37,593 bases of DNA from Actinomycetes bacterium (lineage in GTDB: Bacteria > Actinomycetota > Thermoleophilia > Solirubrobacterales > Solirubrobacteraceae), in NCBI GenBank assembly GCA_021846845.1, contig JAJZWB010000021.1, positions 1-37,593 of the forward strand, written 5' to 3'. The notes beneath the pieces are model-generated. The model made no database searches, was not told where the DNA came from, and saw only the letters and a list, made by a program, of their open reading frames with translations. Positions 1 to 20,412 of this stretch are shown in pieces. The position numbers were made by a program, and so were the translations under genes. The first letter of the stretch is position 1. The number at the start of each line of letters is the position of its first letter.

Positions 1-309
1 GTCACCAAGCAGCTGCACAAGCTGGTCAACGTGCTCAAGATCCGCGACCTGGAGCCGGCCGAGACGCTCGCGCGCGAGCTGGCGCTGTTCAAGATCTCGG
101 TTGAGGGTCCTTCGAGGACCGAGGTGGTGCAGATCTGCGAGATCTTCCGAGCGCGGATCGTCGACGTCGGGCGGCGCTCGGTCGTCGTCGAGGTGACGGG
201 AACCTGCGACAAGGTGGACGCCTTCGAGGCCCTGGTACGGCCGTTCGGGCAGGTGGAGATGGCCCGGACCGGCGAGATCGCGATCGCTCGCGGTCGCGGC
301 GAGACCTGA
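1..309 (+). CDS. ilvN: Acetolactate synthase small (regulatory) subunit, 3' part
   Basis: The reading frame is open from the first base, so the gene begins outside the window; 102 residues are visible. The start of the visible part (VTKQLHKLVNVLKIRDL) and the segment SRTEVVQICEIFRARIVDVG match the region just after the ACT domain and the C-terminal domain of IlvN. IlvN activates the catalytic subunit IlvB and carries valine feedback inhibition in the first common step of branched-chain amino acid synthesis. The missing N-terminal part should hold the ACT domain. A GC hairpin follows at 332-350. Its usual partner ilvC is not next but about 16 kb downstream. Identity is confident from the conserved C-terminal region. 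Confidence 0.9.
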   Translation, partial: VTKQLHKLVNVLKIRDLEPAETLARELALFKISVEGPSRTEVVQICEIFRARIVDVGRRSVVVEVTGTCDKVDAFEALVRPFGQVEMARTGEIAIARGRGET

Positions 310-331
310 CGGGCTTGGCCGGGAGGGTCGC

Positions 332-350
332 GCCCCCGGGATGCGGGGGC
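332..350 (+). terminator. GC hairpin after ilvN
   Basis: A perfect 7-bp stem GCCCCCG/CGGGGGC with a 5-nt loop lies 22 nt after the ilvN stop and is followed by TT and a G-run rather than a true U-tract. It may end the ilvBN transcript. The rest of 310-481 is GC-rich, with no ORF or clear promoter that I can support. Confidence 0.4.
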
Positions 351-481
351 TTGGGGGCGATCGGGTGCCGCGACCGCGGAGATCCGCCGCACGTCGCAGC
401 TCGCACGGCGCGGCAAGCCGGCGCTCGTGGGTGGGCGGCGGACGGCTCAAGCTTTCGGTGCAGCGGCCGCTTTAAGCGCTG

Positions 482-850
482 ATGGGCTTTCAGATCGGTA
501 TGGACCTGGTCGAGCTGATGGAGATGGAGCGGTCCCTGGAGATGCACGACGACCGCTTCCTGGACCGTGTGTACACACCCGCCGAGCGCGACCGTGCCCG
601 GCGTCATCCGCGCCGGCTCGCCGCCGGCTTCGCCGCCAAGGAGGCAACCATGAAGGCGTTGGGGAGAACGGACGAGGCCATCGGCTGGCGCTCGGTGGAG
701 GTGATCGGCGACGGGCGCTCGCCGTCGGTGGTGCTCCGCGGCGACGCCGCTCGCCTCGCCCGCGAGCGCGGCGTCGTCGGACTGACCCTGAGCGTGAGCT
801 GCGACGGCGAGCTCGCCGCCGCCCTGGCGATCGCAGAGGTGGCGTCGTGA
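482..850 (+). CDS. AcpS-like 4'-phosphopantetheinyl transferase
   Basis: This 122-residue protein has the AcpS family size. It would transfer phosphopantetheine from CoA to a serine of a carrier protein. The Mg-binding motifs are visible: G-M-D-L-V-E-L with Asp8 near the N-terminus, and F-A-A-K-E-A with Glu54. The usual S-x-S-H segment near the C-terminus reads SVSC (about residues 104-107), so the customary His is Cys. The ATG at 482 places the GMDLVE motif where the family has it; no strong Shine-Dalgarno is visible. The stop overlaps the GTG of the carrier-protein gene by 4 nt. That arrangement suggests an activator dedicated to the neighbouring carrier protein rather than the housekeeping AcpS, although the latter cannot be excluded. 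Confidence 0.8.
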   Translation: MGFQIGMDLVELMEMERSLEMHDDRFLDRVYTPAERDRARRHPRRLAAGFAAKEATMKALGRTDEAIGWRSVEVIGDGRSPSVVLRGDAARLARERGVVGLTLSVSCDGELAAALAIAEVAS

Positions 851-1104
851 GCGAGACGGTCAACGCCACGATCCGCACGGTGGTGCGCGACCATGCCCGC
901 CTGCCGGTCGACGTCGACACGCTTGCCGACGACGAGGACCTGTTCGCCGCAGGGATGAGCTCCCACGCGAGCGTCAACGTGATGCTCGCGCTCGAGGACG
1001 CGTTCGACCTCGAGTTCCCCGACGCGATGCTCAAGCGCAGCGTGTTCGAGAGCATCACGGCGATCGAGGCGGCGATCGCGTCGCTGCGGGAGCTCGCTGC
1101 ATGA
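847..1104 (+). CDS. Discrete acyl/aminoacyl carrier protein
   Basis: This small acidic protein of 85 residues has the carrier-protein fold pattern. The phosphopantetheine site is G36-M-S-S39-H in place of the canonical G-x-D-S-L, with Ser39 as the modified residue, followed by the helix ASVNVMLALEDAFDLEFP. The loss of Asp before the serine and the S-S-H/F-A-S-V style of this loop resemble, from memory, the stand-alone carrier proteins served by amino acid:[carrier protein] ligases (such as Bll0956 of Bradyrhizobium). The GTG start overlaps the preceding stop (GTGA), and its own stop overlaps the next ATG (ATGA), so translation is probably coupled. The amino acid carried cannot be read from sequence. 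Confidence 0.85.
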   Translation: MSETVNATIRTVVRDHARLPVDVDTLADDEDLFAAGMSSHASVNVMLALEDAFDLEFPDAMLKRSVFESITAIEAAIASLRELAA

Positions 1105-2276
1105 CCGTCCAGATTGACCGGGGACGGGCGTTCCTGGACGAGATCGAGCGGATCGCGCGGGACGTCGCGGCCGCGCACGCCGACGAGGTCGATCGCGACG
1201 CCCGCTTCCCGGTGGAGGCGATCGACGCGCTGCGCGAGGCAGGCGCGCTGTCGGCGTTCGTGCCCGCGTCCCTCGGAGGCGGCGGCGTCCCCCTCACGGC
1301 GCTCGCGCGCGCCTGCCTGGAGCTCGCACGCGGCTGCTCGGCGACCGCGATGGTGTTCGCGATGCACCAGATCCAGATCGCCACGATCGTCCGCCACATG
1401 GATCGGGGCGGCTGGTACGAGTCGTACCTGCGCCGCGTCGTCGACGAGCAGCGGCTGGTCGCGTCGATCACCTCCGAGGTGGGGACCGGCGGCGACATGA
1501 GCCGCTCGATCGCGGCCGTCACCCAGGCCGACGGCGGCCTGCTGCGATTCGAGAAGCAGGCGCCGACGGTGAGCTACGGCGCGCACGCGGACGACTTCTT
1601 CACGACCCTCAGGCGCGCCCCGGAGGTCGACGAGGGCGACCAGGTGATGGTGCTGCACCACGCCGACCAGACCGACCTGGAACGGGTCGGCACCTGGGAC
1701 ACGATCGGGATGCGGGGGACGTGCTCTCCCGGGTTCGTGGTGCGCTGCACGTTCGCCCCGGAGCAGGTCCTGGCGGCTCCGTTCTCGGCGGTGGCCAACG
1801 AGTCCCAGGTGCCGATCTCGCACGTCCTGTGGTCCCACGTATGGCTCGGGATCGCGGTCGAGGCGTTCGAGCGGGGGCGCGCATTCGTGCGCGCCGCGGC
1901 CAGGCGCAGCCGCGGGAATCCGGTGCCGGCGGCGCACAGCCTCTCCCGGGTGATGAGCGAGCTGGCGCTGCTGAGAGCGGAGGTCGGGTCCGGGCTCGCC
2001 GAGTTCGTCGCCGCCGACGAGGACGACGATCGCGACCGGCTGTCGACGATGGCGTCGATCCTGCGCTTCAACAACCTCAAGCTCGCAGCATCCGAGCAGA
2101 CGCCGCGGGTCTGCATGGGAGTGCTGGAGGTGATCGGGATCATGGCGTACAAGAACGACTCGCCCTACGGCGTCGGCCGGCAGCTGCGCGACGCGCTGTC
2201 GGCGAGGCTGATGGTCGCCAATGAGCGGGTCCATTCGATCGACGCCGGACTGCTGATGATCGCCAAGGAGGTTTGA
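1101..2276 (+). CDS. Acyl-CoA dehydrogenase-like flavoprotein
   Basis: This 391-residue protein has full acyl-CoA dehydrogenase architecture: a helical N-terminal domain (about 1-115), a beta-barrel middle domain with ITSEVGTGGD (the family LTEPGSGSD flavin loop, about 125-135), and a helical C-terminal domain (about 230-391). The position that holds the catalytic Glu in short- and medium-chain enzymes (Y-E-G-T, ten residues into the R-D-A block) aligns by eye with Val372; Glu375 is the nearest acid. It therefore may not be an ordinary fatty acyl-CoA enzyme. Being coupled to a carrier-protein gene (ATGA overlap) and an aminoacyl-carrier ligase, it plausibly oxidises an aminoacyl group on the carrier protein, as some flavoproteins do with prolyl-carrier proteins. 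That substrate is inference. Confidence 0.85.
   Translation: MTVQIDRGRAFLDEIERIARDVAAAHADEVDRDARFPVEAIDALREAGALSAFVPASLGGGGVPLTALARACLELARGCSATAMVFAMHQIQIATIVRHMDRGGWYESYLRRVVDEQRLVASITSEVGTGGDMSRSIAAVTQADGGLLRFEKQAPTVSYGAHADDFFTTLRRAPEVDEGDQVMVLHHADQTDLERVGTWDTIGMRGTCSPGFVVRCTFAPEQVLAAPFSAVANESQVPISHVLWSHVWLGIAVEAFERGRAFVRAAARRSRGNPVPAAHSLSRVMSELALLRAEVGSGLAEFVAADEDDDRDRLSTMASILRFNNLKLAASEQTPRVCMGVLEVIGIMAYKNDSPYGVGRQLRDALSARLMVANERVHSIDAGLLMIAKEV
2265..2271 (+). promoter_or_regulatory. Strong Shine-Dalgarno for the carrier-protein ligase gene
   Basis: AAGGAGG, 6 nt before the ATG at 2278. It is one of the few near-perfect Shine-Dalgarno sequences in the window and fixes this start. It lies inside the last codons of the upstream dehydrogenase gene. 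Confidence 0.75.
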
Positions 2277-2277
2277 G

Positions 2278-3207
2278 ATGACCGAGGCGCGCGCGGCCTC
2301 GCCAGACCAGGCGCAGCTGCTGGAGCGGCTGCTCGAGCACGGCCACCTGGTCGCGTCCGGCGTGCCGGGCGTCTACGGCCACGGCGCCGAGTTCGAGGAT
2401 GTCCGCGCCCGCCTCGACGAGCGGCTCAGCTCGGAGGCCGCGGATCGCGGCGCCGAACGGCTGCGCTTCCCGCCGCTGCTGCCCCGCCACCACCTGGAGT
2501 CCAGCGGCTACCTCGGCTCGTTCCCGCATCTCGCCGGCACCGTGTACTCGTTCGACGGCGACGAGCGCCAGGCGCGCGAGCAGGCCGAGCTCGCCGCTCG
2601 CCACGAGCCGTGGGGCGAGTTTCAGCAGATGACCGAGCTCACGCTGATGCCGGCGGCCTGCTATCCGGTGTACCCAGCCGTCGCGGCCCGCGGCCGCCTG
2701 CCGGTGGGCGGCGTGTTCGTCGACGCCGGCGGGGCATGGGTCTTCCGCCACGAGCCGTCGCACGATCCGGCCCGCCGCCAGATCTTCCACCAGCACGAGC
2801 TGGTGAGGATCGGGGAGCCCGAGGCGGTGCTGGAATGGCGTGAGGAGTGGGCGGACCGTGGCCTGGCGCTCCTGCGGGCGCTCGGCCTCGACGCGCGGCT
2901 GGATGTGGCCAACGACCCCTTCTTCGGCCGGCGCGGGAGGATGTTGGCCGCCAACCAGCAGGCCGAGCGTCTGAAGCTTGAGCTGCTCGTCCAGATCGCC
3001 GGTCCCGAGCCGACCGCGTGCGCCTCGTTCAACCACCACCGCGACCATTTCGGGTCGACCTGGGGGATCGAGCTGTCGGATGGCCGCACCGCTCACACGG
3101 CCTGCCTGGGCTTCGGGCACGAGCGGATCGTGCTGGCGCTGCTCCAGCGCCACGGGATGGACCCCGGCGCCTGGCCCGGTTCCGTGCGAGCGGAGCTGTG
3201 GCGGTGA
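2278..3207 (+). CDS. SerRS-like amino acid:[carrier protein] ligase
   Basis: This is a class II aminoacyl-tRNA synthetase catalytic core of only 309 residues, without the N-terminal helical arm that binds tRNA in true SerRS. Motif 2 is seen as V-F-R-H-E (155-159) with the following Q-I-F-H-Q-H-E-L-V-R-I-G, and motif 3 as G-F-G-H-E-R (278-283). Cys128, Glu174 and Cys276 fit the Cys-Glu-Cys zinc set of methanogen-type SerRS and of the Bradyrhizobium ligase Bll0957 (recalled as Cys131/Glu176/Cys279). Characterised relatives activate glycine or alanine with ATP and load it onto the phosphopantetheine of a small carrier protein instead of tRNA. The adjacent carrier protein and AcpS-like genes support that role. 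The amino acid used here is unknown. Confidence 0.88.
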   Translation: MTEARAASPDQAQLLERLLEHGHLVASGVPGVYGHGAEFEDVRARLDERLSSEAADRGAERLRFPPLLPRHHLESSGYLGSFPHLAGTVYSFDGDERQAREQAELAARHEPWGEFQQMTELTLMPAACYPVYPAVAARGRLPVGGVFVDAGGAWVFRHEPSHDPARRQIFHQHELVRIGEPEAVLEWREEWADRGLALLRALGLDARLDVANDPFFGRRGRMLAANQQAERLKLELLVQIAGPEPTACASFNHHRDHFGSTWGIELSDGRTAHTACLGFGHERIVLALLQRHGMDPGAWPGSVRAELWR

Positions 3208-4208
3208 TGGTCAAGGCCCCGGCGCCGCGCCCCACGGGCGACCGGCCGGTCGCCTCCGCGCCCAGCCTCACCGGCCACCGGCCTGAAGCCTACGAGCGTC
3301 ACCCGCTGCACGCCGCGGAGCGCGCGTACATCGAGACCAACTGCTACGCCGACGTGGTGATCGAGCTGCTGCACGCTCTCGGCTACGAGCCGCTGGCGGC
3401 GTTCGGGCATCTGGTGCGGATGGACTTCGAGGGCGACCAGTGGACGTTCTTCAAGCCGCCCGCGGAGGACCTCGAGCGGCTCTACGGCATAGACGTGCAC
3501 GAGATGCAGCCCTACCGGCCGCTGCCGGCCCAGATCGCCGAGCAGCTGGCCAGGGGGCGGACCCTGATCGTGGAGCTCGACGCGTGGTGGCTGCCCGACA
3601 CCGCCTCGACCAGCTACCGCGCGCAGCACGTCAAGACCTCGGTCGCCGTCGATGCGATCGACCAGCGCGGGCACAGCCTGCGCTACTTCCACGGGCCGGG
3701 GCTGTTCGAGCTCGCCGGCGAGGACTACCGCGGCGTGCTGCGGGTCGACGGCGTCGCGGGCGACGTGCTGCCGCCCTACACCGAGCTGGTGCGCTTCGAC
3801 GCGGGCGATCGGCTCCAGGGCCCCGCGCTGCGCGCGGAGGCGCTCGAGACGCTGCGCCGCCACCTGGCGCGGGTGCCGTCCACGAACCCCTTCGAGCGCT
3901 TCGCGGCGCACCTGGTCTCGGAGCTGCCCGCGCTGCTGGCCGGGGGGCCCGAGGACTACCACGCGTTCGCGTTCGCGACCGTGCGGATGGCGGGCTCCGC
4001 GTTCGAGCTGCTGGCCGACCATGCCCGCTGGCTGCTCGGACCGGAGGTCGATCCGGGCGTCGCCGCGATGACGGAGATCGTCGACGGCTGCAAGGCGCTG
4101 TCGTTCCGGCTCGCCCGGCGGAGGGGCTTCGACCCCGAGCCCGCGCTCGGCTTACTCGCCGACGCCTGGGAGAGGGCCCTGAGCTGCGTCGCCGCGGCGG
4201 CGGGCTGA
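3207..4208 (+). CDS. DUF1839 protein, candidate aminoacyl transferase
   Basis: 333 residues from ATG 3207, which overlaps the preceding TGA by 1 nt (TGATG); an in-frame GTG at 3204 is an alternative start. Conserved family blocks are present: E-T-N-C-Y near residue 45, DFEGDQWTFFKPP, L-Y-G-I, V-E-L-D-A-W-W-L-P-D-T, and A-Q-H-V-K-T-S. DUF1839 genes are recalled as neighbours of amino acid:[carrier protein] ligases, but their reaction is unproven. The order Cys near a helix, then G-R-x-L-I-V-E-L-D-x-W-x-L-P, then His before a strand resembles the N-terminal domain of BtrH. BtrH moves an aminoacyl chain from a carrier protein to an aminoglycoside through a papain-like Cys/His pair. I therefore suggest, as inference, an aminoacyl-carrier-protein transferase. 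Confidence 0.75.
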   Translation: MVKAPAPRPTGDRPVASAPSLTGHRPEAYERHPLHAAERAYIETNCYADVVIELLHALGYEPLAAFGHLVRMDFEGDQWTFFKPPAEDLERLYGIDVHEMQPYRPLPAQIAEQLARGRTLIVELDAWWLPDTASTSYRAQHVKTSVAVDAIDQRGHSLRYFHGPGLFELAGEDYRGVLRVDGVAGDVLPPYTELVRFDAGDRLQGPALRAEALETLRRHLARVPSTNPFERFAAHLVSELPALLAGGPEDYHAFAFATVRMAGSAFELLADHARWLLGPEVDPGVAAMTEIVDGCKALSFRLARRRGFDPEPALGLLADAWERALSCVAAAAG

Positions 4209-4215
4209 GCGCTCG

Positions 4216-6801
4216 ATGGATTCCGTGAGCGAAGCCCGGGACCGGCGCCTGCCGCTGGCCGGCGTCTGGGATCTGACCTGGACCGAGGCGGGCGCCTGCG
4301 CGCGGCCCCGCGACCTCGACGCGCTCGAGGTACGGTGGCTTCCGGCGCCGGTGCCCGGCACGGTCGCCGGCGCGCTGGCGCTGGCGACGGCCGACGGCGC
4401 CGTGCACCGGCCGGTGCCCGACGAGCGTCACATCGATCGTCTGGACTGGTGGTATCGGCGCTCGTTCCAGGCCCCCGCCGCCCTCGACGGCGAGGAGGCG
4501 GTGCTGTCGCTTGAGGGGATCGCGACCGTCTCGGAGGTCTTCCTCAACGGCCGGCGTCTGCTCGCCTCGGACTCGATGTTCGCCTCCCACGAGCGGGACG
4601 TCGGCGCGCTGCTGGGGGATGAGAACGAGATCGTGGTGTGCTGCCGCGCGCTCGCCCCGCTGCTGGCCGGCCGCCGCCGCCCTCGAGCGCGCTGGCGCAC
4701 GCGGCTGGTCGCGGAGGGAAATCTGCGCTTTCACCGCACGATGCTGCTGGGTCGCGCCCCGGGCTTCGCGCCCGGGCCGGCCGTGGCGGGGCTCTGGCGC
4801 CCGGCGGCGATCGAGCGCCGGCGCGGTCTGGTGCTGGAGCGCCCTCGGATGCGCGCCCGGCCGGACGGGCGCGACGGCGTGCTGGAGTGCTCTGCGCGGG
4901 TGCGCGCGCTGCCGGGCTTCGAGCTGCCCGACGAGCTGACCGTGGCGGTGGCATCCGGCGGCTCGACGGTGACCGGGACGCTCGCCGTGGATCGGGTCGA
5001 CGCGCGCTCCGGGGCCTGCTCGGGCGCCGTCACGGTGCCGGATGCCGAGCGCTGGTGGCCACACACCCATGGCCGTCCCGCGCTCTACGAGGTGACGATC
5101 GGCGGGCCGGATGCCGTGCTTCACCGCGCCCGCGTCGGCTTTCGGGCGCTTGAGTCGCCCGGGGAGGTCGAGGCCGACGGGCTCGACCTCAGGGTCAACG
5201 ATGTGCCGGTGTTCGCTCGCGGTGCGGTCTGGGCGCCGCCGGACCTGCGGGCCCCGCACTGCGACCGTGAGGCGCTCCGCGACATCCTGGCCCGCGTGGC
5301 CGGCGCCGGGATGAACATGGTGCGCGTTCACGGAACCGCGGCCTACGAGTCGGACGCCTTCTACGAGCTCTGCGATGAGCTCGGGATCCTCGTCTGGCAG
5401 GACTTCATGTTCGCCAACCTCGACTACCCGGACGGCGACCCGGCCTTCATCGCCGAGGTCGAGCGCGAGGCGCGCGCCCAGCTCGAGCGCCTCGGACACC
5501 ATCCGTGCCTCGCCGTCCTGTGCGGCTCCAGCGAGGTCGCCCAGCAGGTCGCGATGCTCGGCCTGGACCGCGAGCTCGCGCACGGCCCGCTGTACAGGCG
5601 GCTGCTGCCGGAGCTGGTGCGCGAGGCTCAGGTCGACGCGCCCTACGCCCCGTCGGCGCCCTGCGGTCCCGAGCTGCCGTTCCGCTACGACCGCGGCGTG
5701 GCCAACTACTTCGGGGTCGGCGCGTACCTGCGCCCGCTCTCCGACGCACGGCTGTCCGGGGTGCGCTTCGCGACCGAGTGCCTGGCCTTCGCCAACGTTC
5801 CCGACGACGATGCGCTGGCGGATCTTGACACGCCCGGCGGGCTGGCCGTCCACCATCCGGGCTGGAAGGCCGGGGTCGCCCGCGACGCCGGGGAGGGGTG
5901 GGACTTCGACGACGTCCGCGACCACTACCTTCGCCTGCTGCTCGATGTCGACCCGGTGGCGCTCCGGTGGTCCGACCAGGAGCGCTACCTGCAGCTCTCA
6001 CGCGTCGTCACCGGCGAGGTGATGGCCGACGTGTTCGGCGAGTGGCGGCGGGGCGGCTCCGCGTGCAGGGGTGCGCTGGTCCTGTGGCTGAAGGACCAGC
6101 GGCCGGGAGCGGGCTGGGGACTGCTGGATCACCGGGGCCGTCCCAAGGCGGTCATGCACCACCTCCGGCGGGCGCTGGCGCCGGTCGCGGTCTGGACGAC
6201 CGACGAGGGCCTCCGGGGGATCGACGTCCATGTCGCCAACGACCGGCCGACCCCGCAGCGGGCCGTGCTGCGGGTCGCGCTGTACCGGGACTTCGCGGTG
6301 CGCGTCGACGCGGCACAGGAGGAGATCACGATCGAGCCGCACGGGTACCTGCGCCGCTCCGTTGCGGGCCTGATCGGTCGGTTCGTGGACGCCTCCTGGG
6401 CCTATCGCTTCGGCCCGCCGGCCCAGGATCTGGTGGCGGTGACGCTCCAGGGGCGCGACGGGGCCGTGATCTCACAGGCATTCCGCTTTCCCGCCGGGCG
6501 TCCGCTGTCCGCCTGTACGGCGGACGAGCTCGGACTCGAGGCCCAGCTGCAGCCCGGGCCCGAGGGCCCGCCGCAGCTGCGCGTGCGCAGCCGGCGCTTC
6601 GCGTACGGGGTGCGGGTCGAGGTGCCCGGGTTCGTCGCCGGCGACGACTGGTTCGGCGTCGAGCCTGGAGGGGAGAGGATCCTCGAGCTGGCGCCCGCGG
6701 AGCCCGGCGCGGGTCGTGACGCGCCCGGCGGCGCCGGCGCCGCGGGGGCGCTGACCGCGCTCAACCTGGTCGGGCGCGTCCGGATCGCGCCGCCGGGCTG
6801 A
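4216..6801 (+). CDS. GH2 family protein, beta-mannosidase-like
   Basis: 861 residues, starting 7 nt after the DUF1839 stop. Glycoside hydrolase family 2 layout is visible: a sugar-binding jelly-roll domain (about 10-200), an Ig-like domain (about 205-310), a TIM barrel (about 320-600) and C-terminal beta domains. The barrel carries beta-mannosidase signatures: A-V-W-A-P-P-D (337-343), N-M-V-R-V-H-G, and Y-E-L-C-D-E-L-G-I-L-V-W-Q-D-F-M-F-A (383-400). The acid/base Glu440 sits in G-S-S-E rather than the family N-E, so the conserved Asn is Ser439. The nucleophile candidate is Glu521 in F-A-T-E-C. No signal peptide is evident, so it is probably cytoplasmic. Its place at the end of the carrier-protein operon suggests that it trims or transfers a sugar in the product, or binds one; substrate unknown. 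Confidence 0.8.
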   Translation: MDSVSEARDRRLPLAGVWDLTWTEAGACARPRDLDALEVRWLPAPVPGTVAGALALATADGAVHRPVPDERHIDRLDWWYRRSFQAPAALDGEEAVLSLEGIATVSEVFLNGRRLLASDSMFASHERDVGALLGDENEIVVCCRALAPLLAGRRRPRARWRTRLVAEGNLRFHRTMLLGRAPGFAPGPAVAGLWRPAAIERRRGLVLERPRMRARPDGRDGVLECSARVRALPGFELPDELTVAVASGGSTVTGTLAVDRVDARSGACSGAVTVPDAERWWPHTHGRPALYEVTIGGPDAVLHRARVGFRALESPGEVEADGLDLRVNDVPVFARGAVWAPPDLRAPHCDREALRDILARVAGAGMNMVRVHGTAAYESDAFYELCDELGILVWQDFMFANLDYPDGDPAFIAEVEREARAQLERLGHHPCLAVLCGSSEVAQQVAMLGLDRELAHGPLYRRLLPELVREAQVDAPYAPSAPCGPELPFRYDRGVANYFGVGAYLRPLSDARLSGVRFATECLAFANVPDDDALADLDTPGGLAVHHPGWKAGVARDAGEGWDFDDVRDHYLRLLLDVDPVALRWSDQERYLQLSRVVTGEVMADVFGEWRRGGSACRGALVLWLKDQRPGAGWGLLDHRGRPKAVMHHLRRALAPVAVWTTDEGLRGIDVHVANDRPTPQRAVLRVALYRDFAVRVDAAQEEITIEPHGYLRRSVAGLIGRFVDASWAYRFGPPAQDLVAVTLQGRDGAVISQAFRFPAGRPLSACTADELGLEAQLQPGPEGPPQLRVRSRRFAYGVRVEVPGFVAGDDWFGVEPGGERILELAPAEPGAGRDAPGGAGAAGALTALNLVGRVRIAPPG

Positions 6802-6822
6802 TCCGGCGCGCAGGGGGCGCGG

Positions 6823-6828
6823 TAGGCT
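6823..6828 (+). promoter_or_regulatory. Predicted -10 box (TAGGCT) for menF
   Basis: TAGGCT ends 10 nt before the menF ATG, in the 37-nt gap after the GH2 gene. The start lacks a good Shine-Dalgarno, so the message may be leaderless or nearly so. Confidence 0.4.
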
Positions 6829-6838
6829 CAGGGCCGGG

Positions 6839-8278
6839 ATGACGGCGCGCTCGCAGGCAACGGCGGTGGGCTGGCTGGACGCCGGGGCGGCGCAGCGGCT
6901 GGAGCGGCGGCTGGAGTCCGCCCTGCGCGAGGCCAGGCGCCGTGGGCGCGCGACCCTGGTCAGCGTCAGCTGTCGTCTCCCGGGCACGGGCGTCGACCCG
7001 AGCGCGGTCGTCGCCGCATCGCGCCGGCCCGGCGACCGGTGGTTCTGCCTGGAGCAGCCCGACCGCGACCGGTCGGCGCTCGCCGCGCTCGGGGAGGTGC
7101 TGGCGCTGGAGGACTCCGGCCCGGGGCGATTCGCCTCGCTGGCCGCGCGCTGGCGCCGCGTGGCGGGCGCGGCGCTCGCCGACGAGCCCGACGGGCCTTC
7201 GGGCGGCGGACTGGTGGCGGTCGGCGGCTTCGCATTCGATCCCGCCGGCGGGGCCTCTCGCACTTGGTCGGGCTTCGCCCCGGCGTCGCTGGTCGTGCCG
7301 GAGCTGTCGCTCGCGCGGCGCGGAGACCTCACGCGGCTGACGGTCAACGTGCTGGTGACCGCCGACGACACCGCCGAGGACGCGGGGGGGAGGATCGCCA
7401 GGCGGCTGCGGGAGCTGCGTGAGGTGCCGCTGCCGCTGCTGGATCCCGCGCCGGTGGGCGACTTCGAGGTCTCAAGCCCGCTGGCGCCGGCGCACTACGA
7501 GGAGGCCGTCGCCCGCGCGGTCGCGCGGATTCGCAACGGCGAGTTCCAGAAGGTGGTGCTCGCGCGCGAGGTCGAGGTGCACGCGCCCTCGGCGCACGAT
7601 CCGGCTGCCGTGATCGGCCTGTTGAGGGAGGCCTTCCCCAGCTCGTTCGTCTACGCGGTCGGGCGCGGCGAGGCGACCTTCACCGGCGCCACGCCCGAGC
7701 TGCTGGTGCGGCGCGAGGGCCAGCGGGCCACCACCGTCGCGCTCGCGGGCTCGACCCGCCGCAGCGCCGATCCCGCGGTCGACGACCACCTGGGCGAGCA
7801 GCTGCTTCGATCCGACAAGGACCGTGAGGAGAACGCGATCGTCGCGCGGCGGATCGCGCGGGCGCTGCGTCCGCACTCGGTCTGGGTGACCGTCGCACCC
7901 GAGCCCGTCGTGGTCAAGGTGGCCAACATCCAGCACCTGGCGGCCCCGATCCGCGCTCAGCTGACCGCGCCGGTCGATGCGGTGACGCTCGCCGGCCACC
8001 TGCATCCGACGCCGGCGGTGGGCGCCGAGCCGGCGGCCGCGCTATCGGTGATCCCGGCTCTGGAGGGCTTCGACCGCGGCTGGTACGCGGGTCCGGTCGG
8101 CTGGACCGACGCCTCCGGCGATGGGGAGTTCTGCGTCGCGCTGCGCTGTGCGCTGCTGCGGGGGCGGGTCGGTCGCTGCTACGCCGGCTGTGGGATCGTC
8201 CGCGACTCGGACCCCTCCGCGGAGCTTGCCGAGACCGAGGTCAAGCTCCAGGTGATGCTGCCGGCGCTGGCCGGGTGA
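6839..8278 (+). CDS. menF: Isochorismate synthase
   Basis: 479 residues. It isomerises chorismate to isochorismate, the entry step to menaquinone. The C-terminal chorismate-binding domain shows its usual blocks: FQKVVLAREVEV, FTGATPELLVRREG, L-A-G-S-T-R-R, DKDREENAIV, H-P-T-P-A-V-G-A-E-P, RGWYAGPVGW, and a terminal E-x-E-x-K-L block. Salicylate, anthranilate and aminodeoxychorismate synthases share this fold; the men neighbourhood decides the call. It faces menD and overlaps its 3' end by 38 bp tail to tail (8241-8278), which is consistent with one men locus. Confidence 0.9.
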   Translation: MTARSQATAVGWLDAGAAQRLERRLESALREARRRGRATLVSVSCRLPGTGVDPSAVVAASRRPGDRWFCLEQPDRDRSALAALGEVLALEDSGPGRFASLAARWRRVAGAALADEPDGPSGGGLVAVGGFAFDPAGGASRTWSGFAPASLVVPELSLARRGDLTRLTVNVLVTADDTAEDAGGRIARRLRELREVPLPLLDPAPVGDFEVSSPLAPAHYEEAVARAVARIRNGEFQKVVLAREVEVHAPSAHDPAAVIGLLREAFPSSFVYAVGRGEATFTGATPELLVRREGQRATTVALAGSTRRSADPAVDDHLGEQLLRSDKDREENAIVARRIARALRPHSVWVTVAPEPVVVKVANIQHLAAPIRAQLTAPVDAVTLAGHLHPTPAVGAEPAAALSVIPALEGFDRGWYAGPVGWTDASGDGEFCVALRCALLRGRVGRCYAGCGIVRDSDPSAELAETEVKLQVMLPALAG

Positions 8279-9965
8279 GATCGAGCGCGGCGACCGCCTC
8301 GGCGACGGCGTCGGCCACGCGCCGGTGCAGCTCCACGTTGCGGTGGCGGTCGCTCCTGATCTCGATCAGCCGGGGCCGGTCGCTTGCCAGCGCGGCGAGC
8401 AGGTCCGGCGCGGTCGCGGCTCGCACGTGCTCGAACCCGTAGAGCGCCGCCGCGTGGGCGAAGTCCAGTCCGTGCGGGGTGGCGACGTGCTCCTCGAAGG
8501 CGTCCCGCTCGCCGCTGATCGGCAGGAAGTGGAAGATCCCGCCGCCGTCGTTGTGCACCAGCACGATCGTCAGATTCAGCCGCAGGCGCCTCGCGGCGAG
8601 CATGCCGCCGATGTCGTGGGCGATCGCGACGTCGCCGATCAGCAGCGTGACGGGCCGCCCCGACGCCGCGACGATCCCGAACGCCGTCGAGACGGTTCCG
8701 TCGATCCCGTTGGCACCGCGGTTGGACACGACCCGCGGCAGCCGGTCGCCGGTGCCCAGGTAGAGCTCGGCGTCGCGGATCGGCATCGAGGCGGCCACGA
8801 CCAGCGTCTGCTCCGGTCCGAGCGCCTCGCCCAGCAGCCGCACCACGCGCGGCTCGGAGAGCTCGTCGCCGAGCACCCGCTCGACGGTCGCCGTCGCGGT
8901 CGCGTCGGCTGCCCGCCATGCCGCCAGCCAGCCGGGATCGGTCGGGCCCTGCGGCTCCCATGCCCGCAGGGTCGCGACCGGATCCCCCGCCAGCACATCC
9001 CACAGCGCGGCTGCGGGGTCGTGCCAGGCGCCCTCGGGGTCGAGCGCGATCTGCCTGATGTGACGCAGCGAACCGAGCCACTCACGCAGCGGCTTGGACG
9101 TCGGCAGGTCTCCCACGCGGAGCACCAGCTGAGGCTCGAGCGAGTCGGCGAGGTTGGGCAGGCGAAGCAGGAGGTCGTAGGTGGCGATCGCCGACTCGCC
9201 GCGGCGGGCGCCCGAGAGCGGGTCGGCGAGCAGCGGCCATCCGGCTCGCCGCGCGAACCGCGCGACCGCTCGTCCGAGCTCGGGGTCTCGCTCGTCCCGG
9301 CCGGCGACGATCACGCCGCGAGCGGGGAGCGGGACCACCGGGCTCGCGGCGGCCGCCGGCGGCGCCGGCGCGAAGGTCGTCCAGGGCCGGCCGCCGGGCC
9401 TGCCGGGCAGGCCGTCCGCGGGCAGATCGCCGGGGACGAGCGGGTCGCGCAGCGGGAAGTTGAGGTGCACGGGCCCGGGCCTGCCCGACGCGGCGGTCCA
9501 CCAGGCCCTGCAGGCGAGCTGGCGGACCCAGGCGAGCGTTGCGGGGGTCGCGACGTCGACGCCCACCTCGAAGAACCACTTGGCCGCGTCGCCGTAGATC
9601 TTGAGCTGGTCGATCGCCTGGCCTGCGCCGACCTCGCGCAGCTCGGGCGGGCGATCGGCGGTCAGCACCAGGAGCGGGATCCGCGCGTGGTGGGCCTCGA
9701 TCACGGCCGGCGCGAGGTTCGCGGCCGCAGTCCCGGACGTGCACGTGACCGCGACCGGCGCGCCCGCGGCGCGGGCGGCCCCCAGCGCGAAGAAGCCGGC
9801 CGAGCGCTCGTCGATCTGCGACCAGCAGCGGATCCGCGGCTCGCGCGCGAGCGCGAGCACGATCGGCGTGTTGCGCGATCCCGGGGAGGTGCACGCGTGG
9901 CGCATTCCGCAGCGGGCGAGCTCGTCGCAGAACGCCCGCAGCAGCAGGTGCGAATCGCCGCTCAC
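8241..9965 (-). CDS. menD: SEPHCHC synthase
   Basis: 574 residues with a GTG start. It is a thiamine-diphosphate enzyme that adds 2-oxoglutarate-derived succinic semialdehyde to isochorismate, giving 2-succinyl-5-enolpyruvyl-6-hydroxy-3-cyclohexene-1-carboxylate. MenD signatures are clear: CTSPGSRNTP near the N-terminus, WSQIDERSAGFFALG, TCTSGTAAANLAPAVIEA with the cofactor-activating Glu, LTADRPPELR, GQAIDQ, and a C-terminal L-I-G-D-V-A block followed about 25 residues later by H-N-D-G-G-G-I-F, the metal/ThDP motif. It is divergent from menH with a 53-bp gap and convergent with menF. The start is chosen because the MenD fold begins within about ten residues; no good Shine-Dalgarno is seen. 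Confidence 0.95.
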   Translation of the reverse strand: MSGDSHLLLRAFCDELARCGMRHACTSPGSRNTPIVLALAREPRIRCWSQIDERSAGFFALGAARAAGAPVAVTCTSGTAAANLAPAVIEAHHARIPLLVLTADRPPELREVGAGQAIDQLKIYGDAAKWFFEVGVDVATPATLAWVRQLACRAWWTAASGRPGPVHLNFPLRDPLVPGDLPADGLPGRPGGRPWTTFAPAPPAAAASPVVPLPARGVIVAGRDERDPELGRAVARFARRAGWPLLADPLSGARRGESAIATYDLLLRLPNLADSLEPQLVLRVGDLPTSKPLREWLGSLRHIRQIALDPEGAWHDPAAALWDVLAGDPVATLRAWEPQGPTDPGWLAAWRAADATATATVERVLGDELSEPRVVRLLGEALGPEQTLVVAASMPIRDAELYLGTGDRLPRVVSNRGANGIDGTVSTAFGIVAASGRPVTLLIGDVAIAHDIGGMLAARRLRLNLTIVLVHNDGGGIFHFLPISGERDAFEEHVATPHGLDFAHAAALYGFEHVRAATAPDLLAALASDRPRLIEIRSDRHRNVELHRRVADAVAEAVAALDLTRPAPAASPGA

Positions 9966-10018
9966 GGGCGGACCACGGCGGAGGTCGTCTGTCCTGGCTG
10001 TGCGGTCATGATCTGGCT

Positions 10019-10846
10019 ATGCAGCAGCCACCGATGACGACCCTCGTGCTCCTGCACGGATTCACCAACACGGGTGCGAGCTGGGACGGCGTGGTGACGG
10101 CGCTGCCGGCAGGCTACCGCGCCCTGGCGCCCGACATCCGCGGCCACGGCGCTGCGGCCTCTCTGCGGCCGGTGACGCTCGACGCGGTGCTGGGCGACCT
10201 CGACGCGCTCGCGCCGGGCCCGTTCGAGCTCGCCGGCTACTCGATGGGCGGTAGGATCGCGCTGCAGGCCGCGCTGAGCGACCGGCTGGCGGGGCGCGTG
10301 CGGCGCCTGACGCTGATCGGTTCCAGTCCCGGTCTCGCGGACCCGGCGCAGCGCGCCGAGCGCAGGGCCGGGGACGAGCGGCTCGCCGCGGAGGCCGAGG
10401 CGCTCGACGTGGGCGAGTTCGCGCGGCGCTGGGCGAGGACGCCGGTGCTCGCCGGGTTGACGGGCGATGCCGCGAACGCCTCGCGCATGGACCGGCTGCG
10501 CCACCCCTCCACAGCGGGACTGGCGGAGGCGCTGCGCGGCCTCGGCACCGGCGCGCTTCCGTCGCTCTGGGACCGGCTCGGCGAGCTGGCGATCCCGGTC
10601 TGCCTGGTGGTGGGCGAGCGCGACTCGAAGTTCCGGGCGATCGCGGAGCGCATGGCGGCCGCCATCGCGCGTGCCAGCCTGACCGTGGTGCCGGGCGCCG
10701 GACACGCCGTGCACCTCGAGGCGCCCGCGGCCGTCGCGTCGGCGATCGACGGTCGCGTGCACCTCGAGTCGACGGCGGCCGTCGCGCCGGCGATCGACGG
10801 TCCACCGCTATCCGGGGGCCCGGGGCGAGGCACGCCGCGCCGCTAG
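10019..10846 (+). CDS. menH: Alpha/beta hydrolase, probable SHCHC synthase
   Basis: 275 residues. MenH removes pyruvate from the MenD product to give SHCHC. The alpha/beta-hydrolase features are LLHGFTNTGASWD with the oxyanion region, nucleophile Ser in G-Y-S-M-G-G, a D-I-R-G-H-G loop, and the terminal His in G-A-G-H-A-V-H-L-E-A-P. The men neighbourhood supports MenH, although the fold alone is generic. An in-frame ATG at 10034 (MTTLVLLHG) is an equally good start; CATGAT at 10007-10012 is a weak -10 for the ATG at 10019. The C-terminus is odd: the last helix segment V-H-L-E-x-x-A-A-V-A-x-A-I-D-G occurs twice because of a 48-bp tandem duplication, followed by a Pro/Gly/Arg tail. The stop shares 4 bp with the menC stop. 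Confidence 0.82.
   Translation: MQQPPMTTLVLLHGFTNTGASWDGVVTALPAGYRALAPDIRGHGAAASLRPVTLDAVLGDLDALAPGPFELAGYSMGGRIALQAALSDRLAGRVRRLTLIGSSPGLADPAQRAERRAGDERLAAEAEALDVGEFARRWARTPVLAGLTGDAANASRMDRLRHPSTAGLAEALRGLGTGALPSLWDRLGELAIPVCLVVGERDSKFRAIAERMAAAIARASLTVVPGAGHAVHLEAPAAVASAIDGRVHLESTAAVAPAIDGPPLSGGPGRGTPRR
10709..10804 (+). repeat. 48-bp tandem duplication in the 3' end of menH
   Basis: Two adjacent copies, 10709-10756 and 10757-10804, both beginning GTGCACCTCGAG. They are imperfect but in frame and encode a repeated 16-residue segment. Confidence 0.85.

Positions 10847-17479: not shown

Positions 17480-20412
<2,933 letters not shown>

What the first reader, a model, noticed from the sequence alone, without database searches (positions are those of the whole stretch)
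482..6801. Six-gene operon built around an amino acid:[carrier protein] ligase
A tRNA-synthetase catalytic core without a tRNA arm (2278-3207) is coupled to a discrete carrier protein (847-1104), a private AcpS-like activator (482-850), a flavin dehydrogenase (1101-2276), a DUF1839 protein (3207-4208) and a GH2 protein (4216-6801). Spacings are -4, -4, +1, -1 and +7 nt. Ligases of this kind are known to charge carrier proteins with Gly or Ala in proteobacteria, but their end product is unknown. The bundled activator and glycosidase make this a more complete pathway: activate, load, oxidise, transfer, and process a sugar.
Basis: partly seen in the sequence, partly recalled or inferred. Interest (0 to 1): 0.85.

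Follow-up and report, generated by a model that had tools for sequence, protein, structure and literature searches.

The report
Amino acid-to-sugar coupling operon
This is a soil-actinobacterium copy of a widespread but unsolved bacterial gene cluster that probably loads a small amino acid onto a carrier protein, oxidises it and attaches it to the amino group of a sugar; the cluster is already known, but this copy brings its own carrier-activating enzyme and our fold match makes the attachment step directly testable.

Summary
Five (carrier protein, ACAD-fold flavoenzyme, aa:[CP] ligase, DUF1839, GH2) form a module conserved across Pseudomonadota, Actinomycetota, Myxococcota and Acidobacteriota: of the 80 best ligase loci, 79 have the carrier, 78 the flavoenzyme, 78 DUF1839, 72 GH2. 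Module and likely role (amino acid amide-linked to a cell-surface amino sugar) were predicted in 2010 (PMC2922099), so it is not new. New here: (1) the predicted DUF1839 structure matches CcbD, a carrier-dependent amino-sugar amide synthase (Z 19.8), far above unrelated folds; (2) the 'dehydrogenase' lacks both acyl-CoA dehydrogenase catalytic glutamates and resembles amino-sugar N-oxygenases as much as dehydrogenases, so it is probably not a desaturase; (3) the AcpS belongs to a lineage that travels with the operon in one ligase clade (Actinomycetota, Myxococcota, relatives) and is absent from the alpha/beta-proteobacterial copies examined: a distinct subtype; (4) the window's start overlaps a contig carrying exopolysaccharide-type genes and the usual partner hydrolase. 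No step is shown biochemically; the amino acid, its oxidation product and the acceptor remain unknown.

The parts
482..850 (+). AcpS-type 4'-phosphopantetheinyl transferase, operon-linked lineage
   Evidence: PF01648 E 2.6e-12, TIGR00556 52.5 bits v cut-off 45.35; 28 operon-linked AcpS form one side of a 100/100 branch against 23 other AcpS of the same order
847..1104 (+). aminoacyl carrier protein, GMSS motif, predicted phosphopantetheine site Ser39
   Evidence: NF005480 above cut-off; matches the CP of the 4h2w complex E 2e-21
1101..2276 (+). ACAD-fold flavoenzyme, probably monooxygenase/oxidase rather than desaturase
   Evidence: AF2 model pLDDT 90.9, ACAD/class D fold; both ACAD catalytic Glu positions lost; KijD3/ORF36/DnmZ among top sequence matches
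2278..3207 (+). amino acid:[carrier protein] ligase (class II SerRS-like core)
   Evidence: NF005479 above cut-off; Bll0957 E 1e-76; C128, E174, C276 aligned to the Bll0957 zinc ligands and invariant in 22 homologues
3207..4208 (+). DUF1839: predicted carrier-protein-dependent amide synthase, papain-like, C46/H141
   Evidence: PF08893 E 3e-96; AF2 pLDDT 91; VIA Z 19.8 to CcbD, 17.8 CtaG, 17.7 AziU3, next unrelated 7.6
4216..6801 (+). GH2 beta-mannosidase-like enzyme, no obvious signal peptide, both catalytic Glu (E440, E521) invariant
   Evidence: beta-mannosidases E 1e-55; invariant in 29 homologues; N-terminus
1..309 (+). C-terminal part of ilvH (acetolactate synthase small subunit) at the contig edge; flanking, not part of the module
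   Evidence: same family as the ilvH of L049; 123-nt overlap with contig C206 end, 3 mismatches
6839..8278 (+). menF-like chorismate-binding enzyme, flanking gene 37 nt downstream
   Evidence: PF00425 E 9e-71

Best explanation
A carrier-protein pathway that couples a small amino acid to an amino sugar. AcpS puts phosphopantetheine on Ser39 of the carrier (inferred from family). The SerRS-like ligase adenylates a small amino acid, Gly or Ala by homology, and loads it as a thioester (inferred from Bll0957). The flavoenzyme oxidises the carrier-bound aminoacyl group, more likely by oxygenating the amine or forming an imine than by alpha,beta-desaturation (inferred from lost bases). DUF1839 takes the acyl group on Cys46 and passes it to the amino group of a sugar to make an amide, as CcbD does (inferred from fold and conserved Cys/His). 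GH2 trims or transfers a sugar of the product in the cytoplasm. The product is probably an N-aminoacylated sugar for a surface glycan or a small glycoconjugate.
For: Ligase and carrier families above curated cut-offs, zinc ligands conserved. Near-invariant co-occurrence. DUF1839 fold = CcbD/CtaG/AziU3; CcbD forms amides between CP-bound amino acids and an amino sugar by a Cys-His-Glu ping-pong mechanism (PMC12945683). D125/H141 spacing (16) resembles D114/H131 of CcbD (17). hhalign to BtrH_N aligns C46, D125 and H141 with the invariant Cys, Asp and His there (weak score). Flavoenzyme analysis. Surface-glycan neighbours: GT4/GT2, Wzx, Wzz, GH5, sugar transferase. bll0957 and bll0958 both show a 3.0-fold change in a Bradyrhizobium phaR mutant (PMC10888616). 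Independent 2010 prediction of the same scheme.
Against: No biochemistry of any step beyond ligase and carrier in homologues. The third residue of the DUF1839 triad differs (invariant H162 where CcbD-type enzymes have an acid; another study proposes C-T/S-H). Structure does not separate dehydrogenase from oxygenase (Z tied at 39-41). Conexibacter DBS9H8 has only carrier and ligase at this locus. In the window the operon is flanked by ilv and men genes; the glycan genes are on the adjoining contig.
Confidence: 0.6

Rival explanations
1. The acceptor is not a sugar: the module makes a small nonribosomal amide (amino acid on a polyamine, peptide or cofactor), and GH2 only removes a sugar from a protected precursor, as in a natural-product pathway.
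For: CtaG (acceptor diaminopropane, from own knowledge) and AziU3 share the fold with DUF1839 almost as well as CcbD; a methyltransferase and an aminotransferase occur in some loci.
Against: GH2 is in nearly all loci and glycosyltransferases, Wzx and Wzz recur.
Confidence: 0.25
2. The flavoenzyme is a true dehydrogenase making an alpha,beta-unsaturated or imino acyl-CP (as ColB1 or prolyl-ACP dehydrogenase do), and the oxidised acyl group is the point of the pathway. (This concerns one step and is compatible with the main explanation for the others.)
For: Equal structural similarity to ACADs, including ColB1 7xp7; prolyl-ACP dehydrogenase 4irn is a sequence match; the best profile hit is an acyl-CoA dehydrogenase, 7p98.
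Against: Both Glu base positions are V/I and S/T/A in the family; KijD3 and nitrososynthases score similarly. Loss of these bases does not by itself exclude amine-to-imine oxidation.
Confidence: 0.3
3. DUF1839 is a thioesterase or peptidase that releases or edits aminoacyl-CP rather than a transferase.
For: Papain-like fold; cysteine peptidases appear at lower rank.
Against: The match spans both the papain-like core and the C-terminal helical half only in CcbD/CtaG/AziU3 (Z 17-20 v 7.6 or less).
Confidence: 0.1

Closest known systems
aa:[CP] ligase / carrier pairs Bll0957 and Atu2573/Atu2571 (Mocibob et al. 2010; PDB 3mey, 4h2w) and their conserved neighbourhood (PMC2922099 note in proof)
   Same: Ligase family, carrier family, zinc-ligand residues, neighbourhood of carrier, redox enzyme, conserved ORF (DUF1839) and glycosidase, predicted amino-sugar acylation
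   Different: This copy is in Solirubrobacteraceae and has a linked AcpS; in the alpha/beta-proteobacterial copies examined there is none
CcbD / LmbD lincosamide condensing enzymes
   Same: Fold of DUF1839 over 286 residues, carrier-bound amino acid donor, amino sugar acceptor proposed
   Different: Only 10-12% identity; donor activated by an aaRS-like ligase instead of an NRPS adenylation enzyme; triad third residue differs
BtrH (butirosin) acyl-ACP:aminoglycoside transferase, PF14399
   Same: Papain-like acyl-carrier transferase to an amino sugar; Cys/Asp/His aligned
   Different: DUF1839 is not matched by PF14399; profile similarity is weak
KijD3 / ORF36 / DnmZ amino-sugar N-oxygenases
   Same: ACAD fold, top or near-top sequence matches for the flavoenzyme
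   Different: About 24% identity; acts presumably on an aminoacyl-CP, not a dTDP sugar; activity untested
Mycothiol pathway (MshC, CysRS-like ligase on GlcN-inositol)
   Same: aaRS-derived enzyme leading to an amino acid amide on an amino sugar (from own knowledge; parallel drawn in PMC2922099)
   Different: MshC forms the amide itself; here a carrier and a separate amide synthase are proposed

Membership tests
amino acid:[carrier protein] ligase (NF005479) | Curated family score | tested here: met
   389.7 bits v cut-off 357
amino acid:[carrier protein] ligase (NF005479) | Zinc ligands (Bll0957 C131/E176/C279, numbers from memory) | tested here: met
   C128, E174, C276 align and are invariant in 22 homologues
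amino acid:[carrier protein] ligase (NF005479) | No tRNA-binding domain | tested here: met
   309 aa; matches only the C-terminal catalytic part (about 310-505) of 520-aa SerRS
amino acid:[carrier protein] ligase (NF005479) | Charges a carrier protein, not tRNA | not testable with these tools
   Needs enzyme assay
aminoacyl carrier protein (NF005480) | Curated score and Ser in GxSS motif | tested here: met
   111 bits v cut-off 72; GMSS with Ser39
AcpS PPTase | PF01648 / TIGR00556 score | tested here: met
   47.2 v 25 and 52.5 v 45.35 bits
AcpS PPTase | Housekeeping holo-ACP synthase model (TIGR00516) | tested here: not met
   41.3 v cut-off 59.8; separate lineage in the tree
acyl-CoA dehydrogenase | ACAD fold | tested here: met
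   VIA Z about 40
acyl-CoA dehydrogenase | Catalytic Glu at the SCAD/MCAD or IVD position | tested here: not met
   V/I and S/T/A at these positions in the family; the SCAD/MCAD Glu is present in four ACADs of the same genome
class D flavin N-oxygenase (nitrososynthase) | Nearest sequence and structure relative | tested here: inconclusive
   Top or tied matches, not separated from ACADs
class D flavin N-oxygenase (nitrososynthase) | Oxygenates an amine with reduced flavin | not testable with these tools
   Needs enzyme assay
DUF1839 (PF08893) | Curated family score | tested here: met
   323 bits v 22.5
CcbD/CtaG/AziU3-type amide synthase | Fold over both halves | tested here: met
   Z 17.2-19.8 over 266-288 residues; next unrelated 7.6
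CcbD/CtaG/AziU3-type amide synthase | Cys-His-acid triad | tested here: inconclusive
   C46 and H141 conserved; H162 instead of an acid by position; no coordinates available for superposition
BtrH (PF14399) | Pfam family match | tested here: not met
   No PF14399 hit for P0005; hhalign probability 12%, E 0.0024
GH2 beta-mannosidase-like | Two catalytic Glu | tested here: met
   E440 and E521 align to Glu of BtMan2A (roles from own knowledge) and are invariant in 29 homologues

The most novel reading that the evidence does not exclude
A self-contained, cross-phylum pathway with its own phosphopantetheinyl transferase makes a still undescribed class of surface or secreted N-(oxidised aminoacyl) amino sugars, for example N-hydroxyglycyl-sugars, using an aaRS-derived ligase, an N-oxygenase acting on a carrier-bound amino acid, and a CcbD-like amide synthase.
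Probability: 0.25. Interest if true: 0.85.

Novelty: new variant of a known kind. Interest (0 to 1): 0.5.

Why it matters
aa:[CP] ligases have been known since 2010 and I found no reported product. The CcbD match names the reaction, the nucleophile (Cys46) and the acceptor class to test, and the flavoenzyme analysis says which mass shift to look for. The AcpS-bearing subtype offers a self-sufficient set for reconstitution without guessing the activating enzyme.

Tried and rejected
Literature searches with Bll0957-type names found no characterisation of the product; only open-licence papers are held, and the original PNAS paper was not read. Structure-based separation of dehydrogenase v oxygenase failed: all Z tied. 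Sequence search of the DUF1839 profile against PDB gave nothing; a BtrH-family profile used as a bridge found AziU3 only at E about 0.9. No promoter or terminator pattern in 1-7200. Considered that AcpS is merely the housekeeping gene: made unlikely by two further ACPS-family loci in the genome and the tree. Considered that the operon is a contaminant contig: unlikely, since relatives L049 and L050 share ilvB-ilvH-operon-menF. A polysaccharide deacetylase on C206 suggested how a free amino group could arise, but no other locus examined has it, so it is not used as evidence.
Full report
What was checked. The six ORFs are present at the stated coordinates with the stated spacing. Curated families confirm the ligase, carrier, DUF1839 and PPTase, and Pfam confirms a GH2 N-domain and an ACAD N-domain. 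The window is a whole 37,593-base contig (C56) of a 3.68 Mb draft genome; named duplicates of its relatives are Solirubrobacteraceae, Conexibacter and Thermoleophilia MAGs.

Conservation. Searching by DUF1839 alone, blind to context, 28 of 201 relatives carry it; around these hits the carrier, flavoenzyme, ligase, DUF1839 and GH2 are adjacent apart from contig ends and a few rearrangements. Proteobacterial plasmids show the same order. From the genome-contig scan with the ligase, the 80 best of 579 loci contain CP 79, ACAD 78, DUF1839 78, GH2 72, two-domain hydrolase 50 and AcpS 15. These 80 are the ones most similar to the query, so the figures are not an unbiased sample. One complete genome (Conexibacter sp. 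DBS9H8, L067) keeps only carrier and ligase at the same site, between ilvH and menF, which looks like a reduced copy.

Already predicted. [quoted passage not shown] PMC10318531 places DUF1839 among papain-like folds.

DUF1839. An AlphaFold2 model from 26 sequences (mean pLDDT 91) matches AziU3, CcbD and CtaG with Foldseek E 5e-8 to 9e-6 and nothing else below 0.02. VIA-align gives Z 19.8 (CcbD, 286 residues, 3.4 A), 17.8 (CtaG), 17.7 (AziU3); the next row is 7.6. CcbD condenses a carrier-bound amino acid with an amino sugar by a Cys-His-Glu triad (PMC12945683). DUF1839 has a near-invariant C46 (lost in one paralogue, L011) and invariant D125, H141 and H162. D125 and H141 are 16 residues apart, as D114 and H131 in CcbD are 17 apart; hhalign with BtrH_N proteins pairs C46, D125 and H141 with their invariant Cys, Asp and His, with a weak score. 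The third catalytic residue is unsettled: PMC10318531 proposes Cys-Thr/Ser-His.

Flavoenzyme. The best single-sequence PDB hits are the amino-sugar N-oxygenases KijD3 and ORF36, level with an acyl-CoA dehydrogenase, 7p98; with profiles 7p98 leads, with KijD3 close behind in one and other ACADs between them in the second. The model has the ACAD fold and cannot separate the groups. In an alignment with four canonical ACADs of the same genome, their EGT/EGN glutamate is V or I in the operon family; the IVD-type position is S, T or A and is followed by an invariant His241. A classical desaturation is therefore unlikely. Oxygenation or amine oxidation is inferred, not shown.

AcpS. The genome has three ACPS-family loci. 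Operon-linked AcpS from Actinomycetota, Myxococcota and others form one side of a 100/100 branch against 23 other AcpS from Solirubrobacterales; AcpS of Myxococcota other than the operon-linked ones were not sampled. On the ligase tree all 24 AcpS-bearing operons fall in one clade of 32 (97/84), with Actinomycetota, Myxococcota, a delta-proteobacterial MAG, an unplaced proteobacterial MAG and one Acidobacteriota MAG without AcpS; no alpha- or beta-proteobacterial copy examined has it. L069 has a longer PPTase next to its carrier instead. I read this as a real subtype.

GH2 and surroundings. GH2 aligns to beta-mannosidases with both catalytic glutamates invariant and shows no obvious signal peptide by a simple hydrophobicity look, so it probably acts in the cytoplasm. 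Frequent further partners are a roughly 600-residue hydrolase combining exosortase-A-associated hydrolases 2 and 1, a methyltransferase, GT4/GT2 glycosyltransferases, Wzx, Wzz and GH5. The first 123 bases of the window overlap the end of contig C206 with 3 mismatches, joining the two halves of ilvH; C206 carries two such hydrolases, a GNAT, a GT4, a polysaccharide deacetylase and an undecaprenyl-type sugar transferase. L049 has the same layout: sugar transferase, hydrolase, ilvB, ilvH, operon. The operon thus appears to sit near glycan genes here too, although the window alone does not show it.

Verdict. The system is known in outline since 2010, and I found no reported product. This copy is an AcpS-bearing variant. 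The most useful additions are the CcbD match and the loss of dehydrogenase residues, which make the chemistry testable. Shown here: gene content, conservation, predicted folds, residue conservation, trees. Inferred: every reaction step, the substrate (Gly/Ala by homology), the acceptor (amino sugar) and the destination (surface glycan or small glycoconjugate).

Noticed in passing
window 1-309 and contig C206 (L151) end: The window's left edge overlaps contig C206 by 123 nt with 3 mismatches inside ilvH; C206 carries exopolysaccharide-type genes and two homologues of the partner hydrolase, so the real neighbourhood extends upstream.
   Followed up: yes
L044:12737-14605; L101:14461-17787: The frequent partner hydrolase combines exosortase-A-associated hydrolase 2 (N-half) and 1 (C-half), and is fused to a Wzx-like flippase in Rhizobium, which hints at a link with XrtA/PEP-CTERM-type exopolysaccharide systems.
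   Followed up: partly
L067:8966-12381: Conexibacter sp. DBS9H8 (complete genome) keeps only carrier and ligase between ilvH and menF, without flavoenzyme, DUF1839, GH2 or AcpS at the site.
   Followed up: partly
L069:5882-18307: Rearranged relative: a longer PPTase beside the carrier, plus a class-III aminotransferase, an ATP-grasp ligase and a divergent flavoenzyme near the aa:CP ligase.
   Followed up: partly
L101:6252-8290: Rhizobial loci carry a class II tRNA-synthetase-like protein and a radical SAM protein just upstream (EpmA/EpmB-like), a second synthetase-derived enzyme beside the module, possibly by chance.
   Followed up: no
window 6839-10846: menF, menD (- strand, 8241-9965) and a menH-like alpha/beta hydrolase follow the operon; the + strand ORF 8325-10037 over menD has no family match and is probably spurious.
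   Followed up: partly
L011:9953-10969 and 18391-19311: Cupriavidus campinensis has two DUF1839 copies; the second has lost the catalytic Cys (NRH instead of NCY).
   Followed up: no
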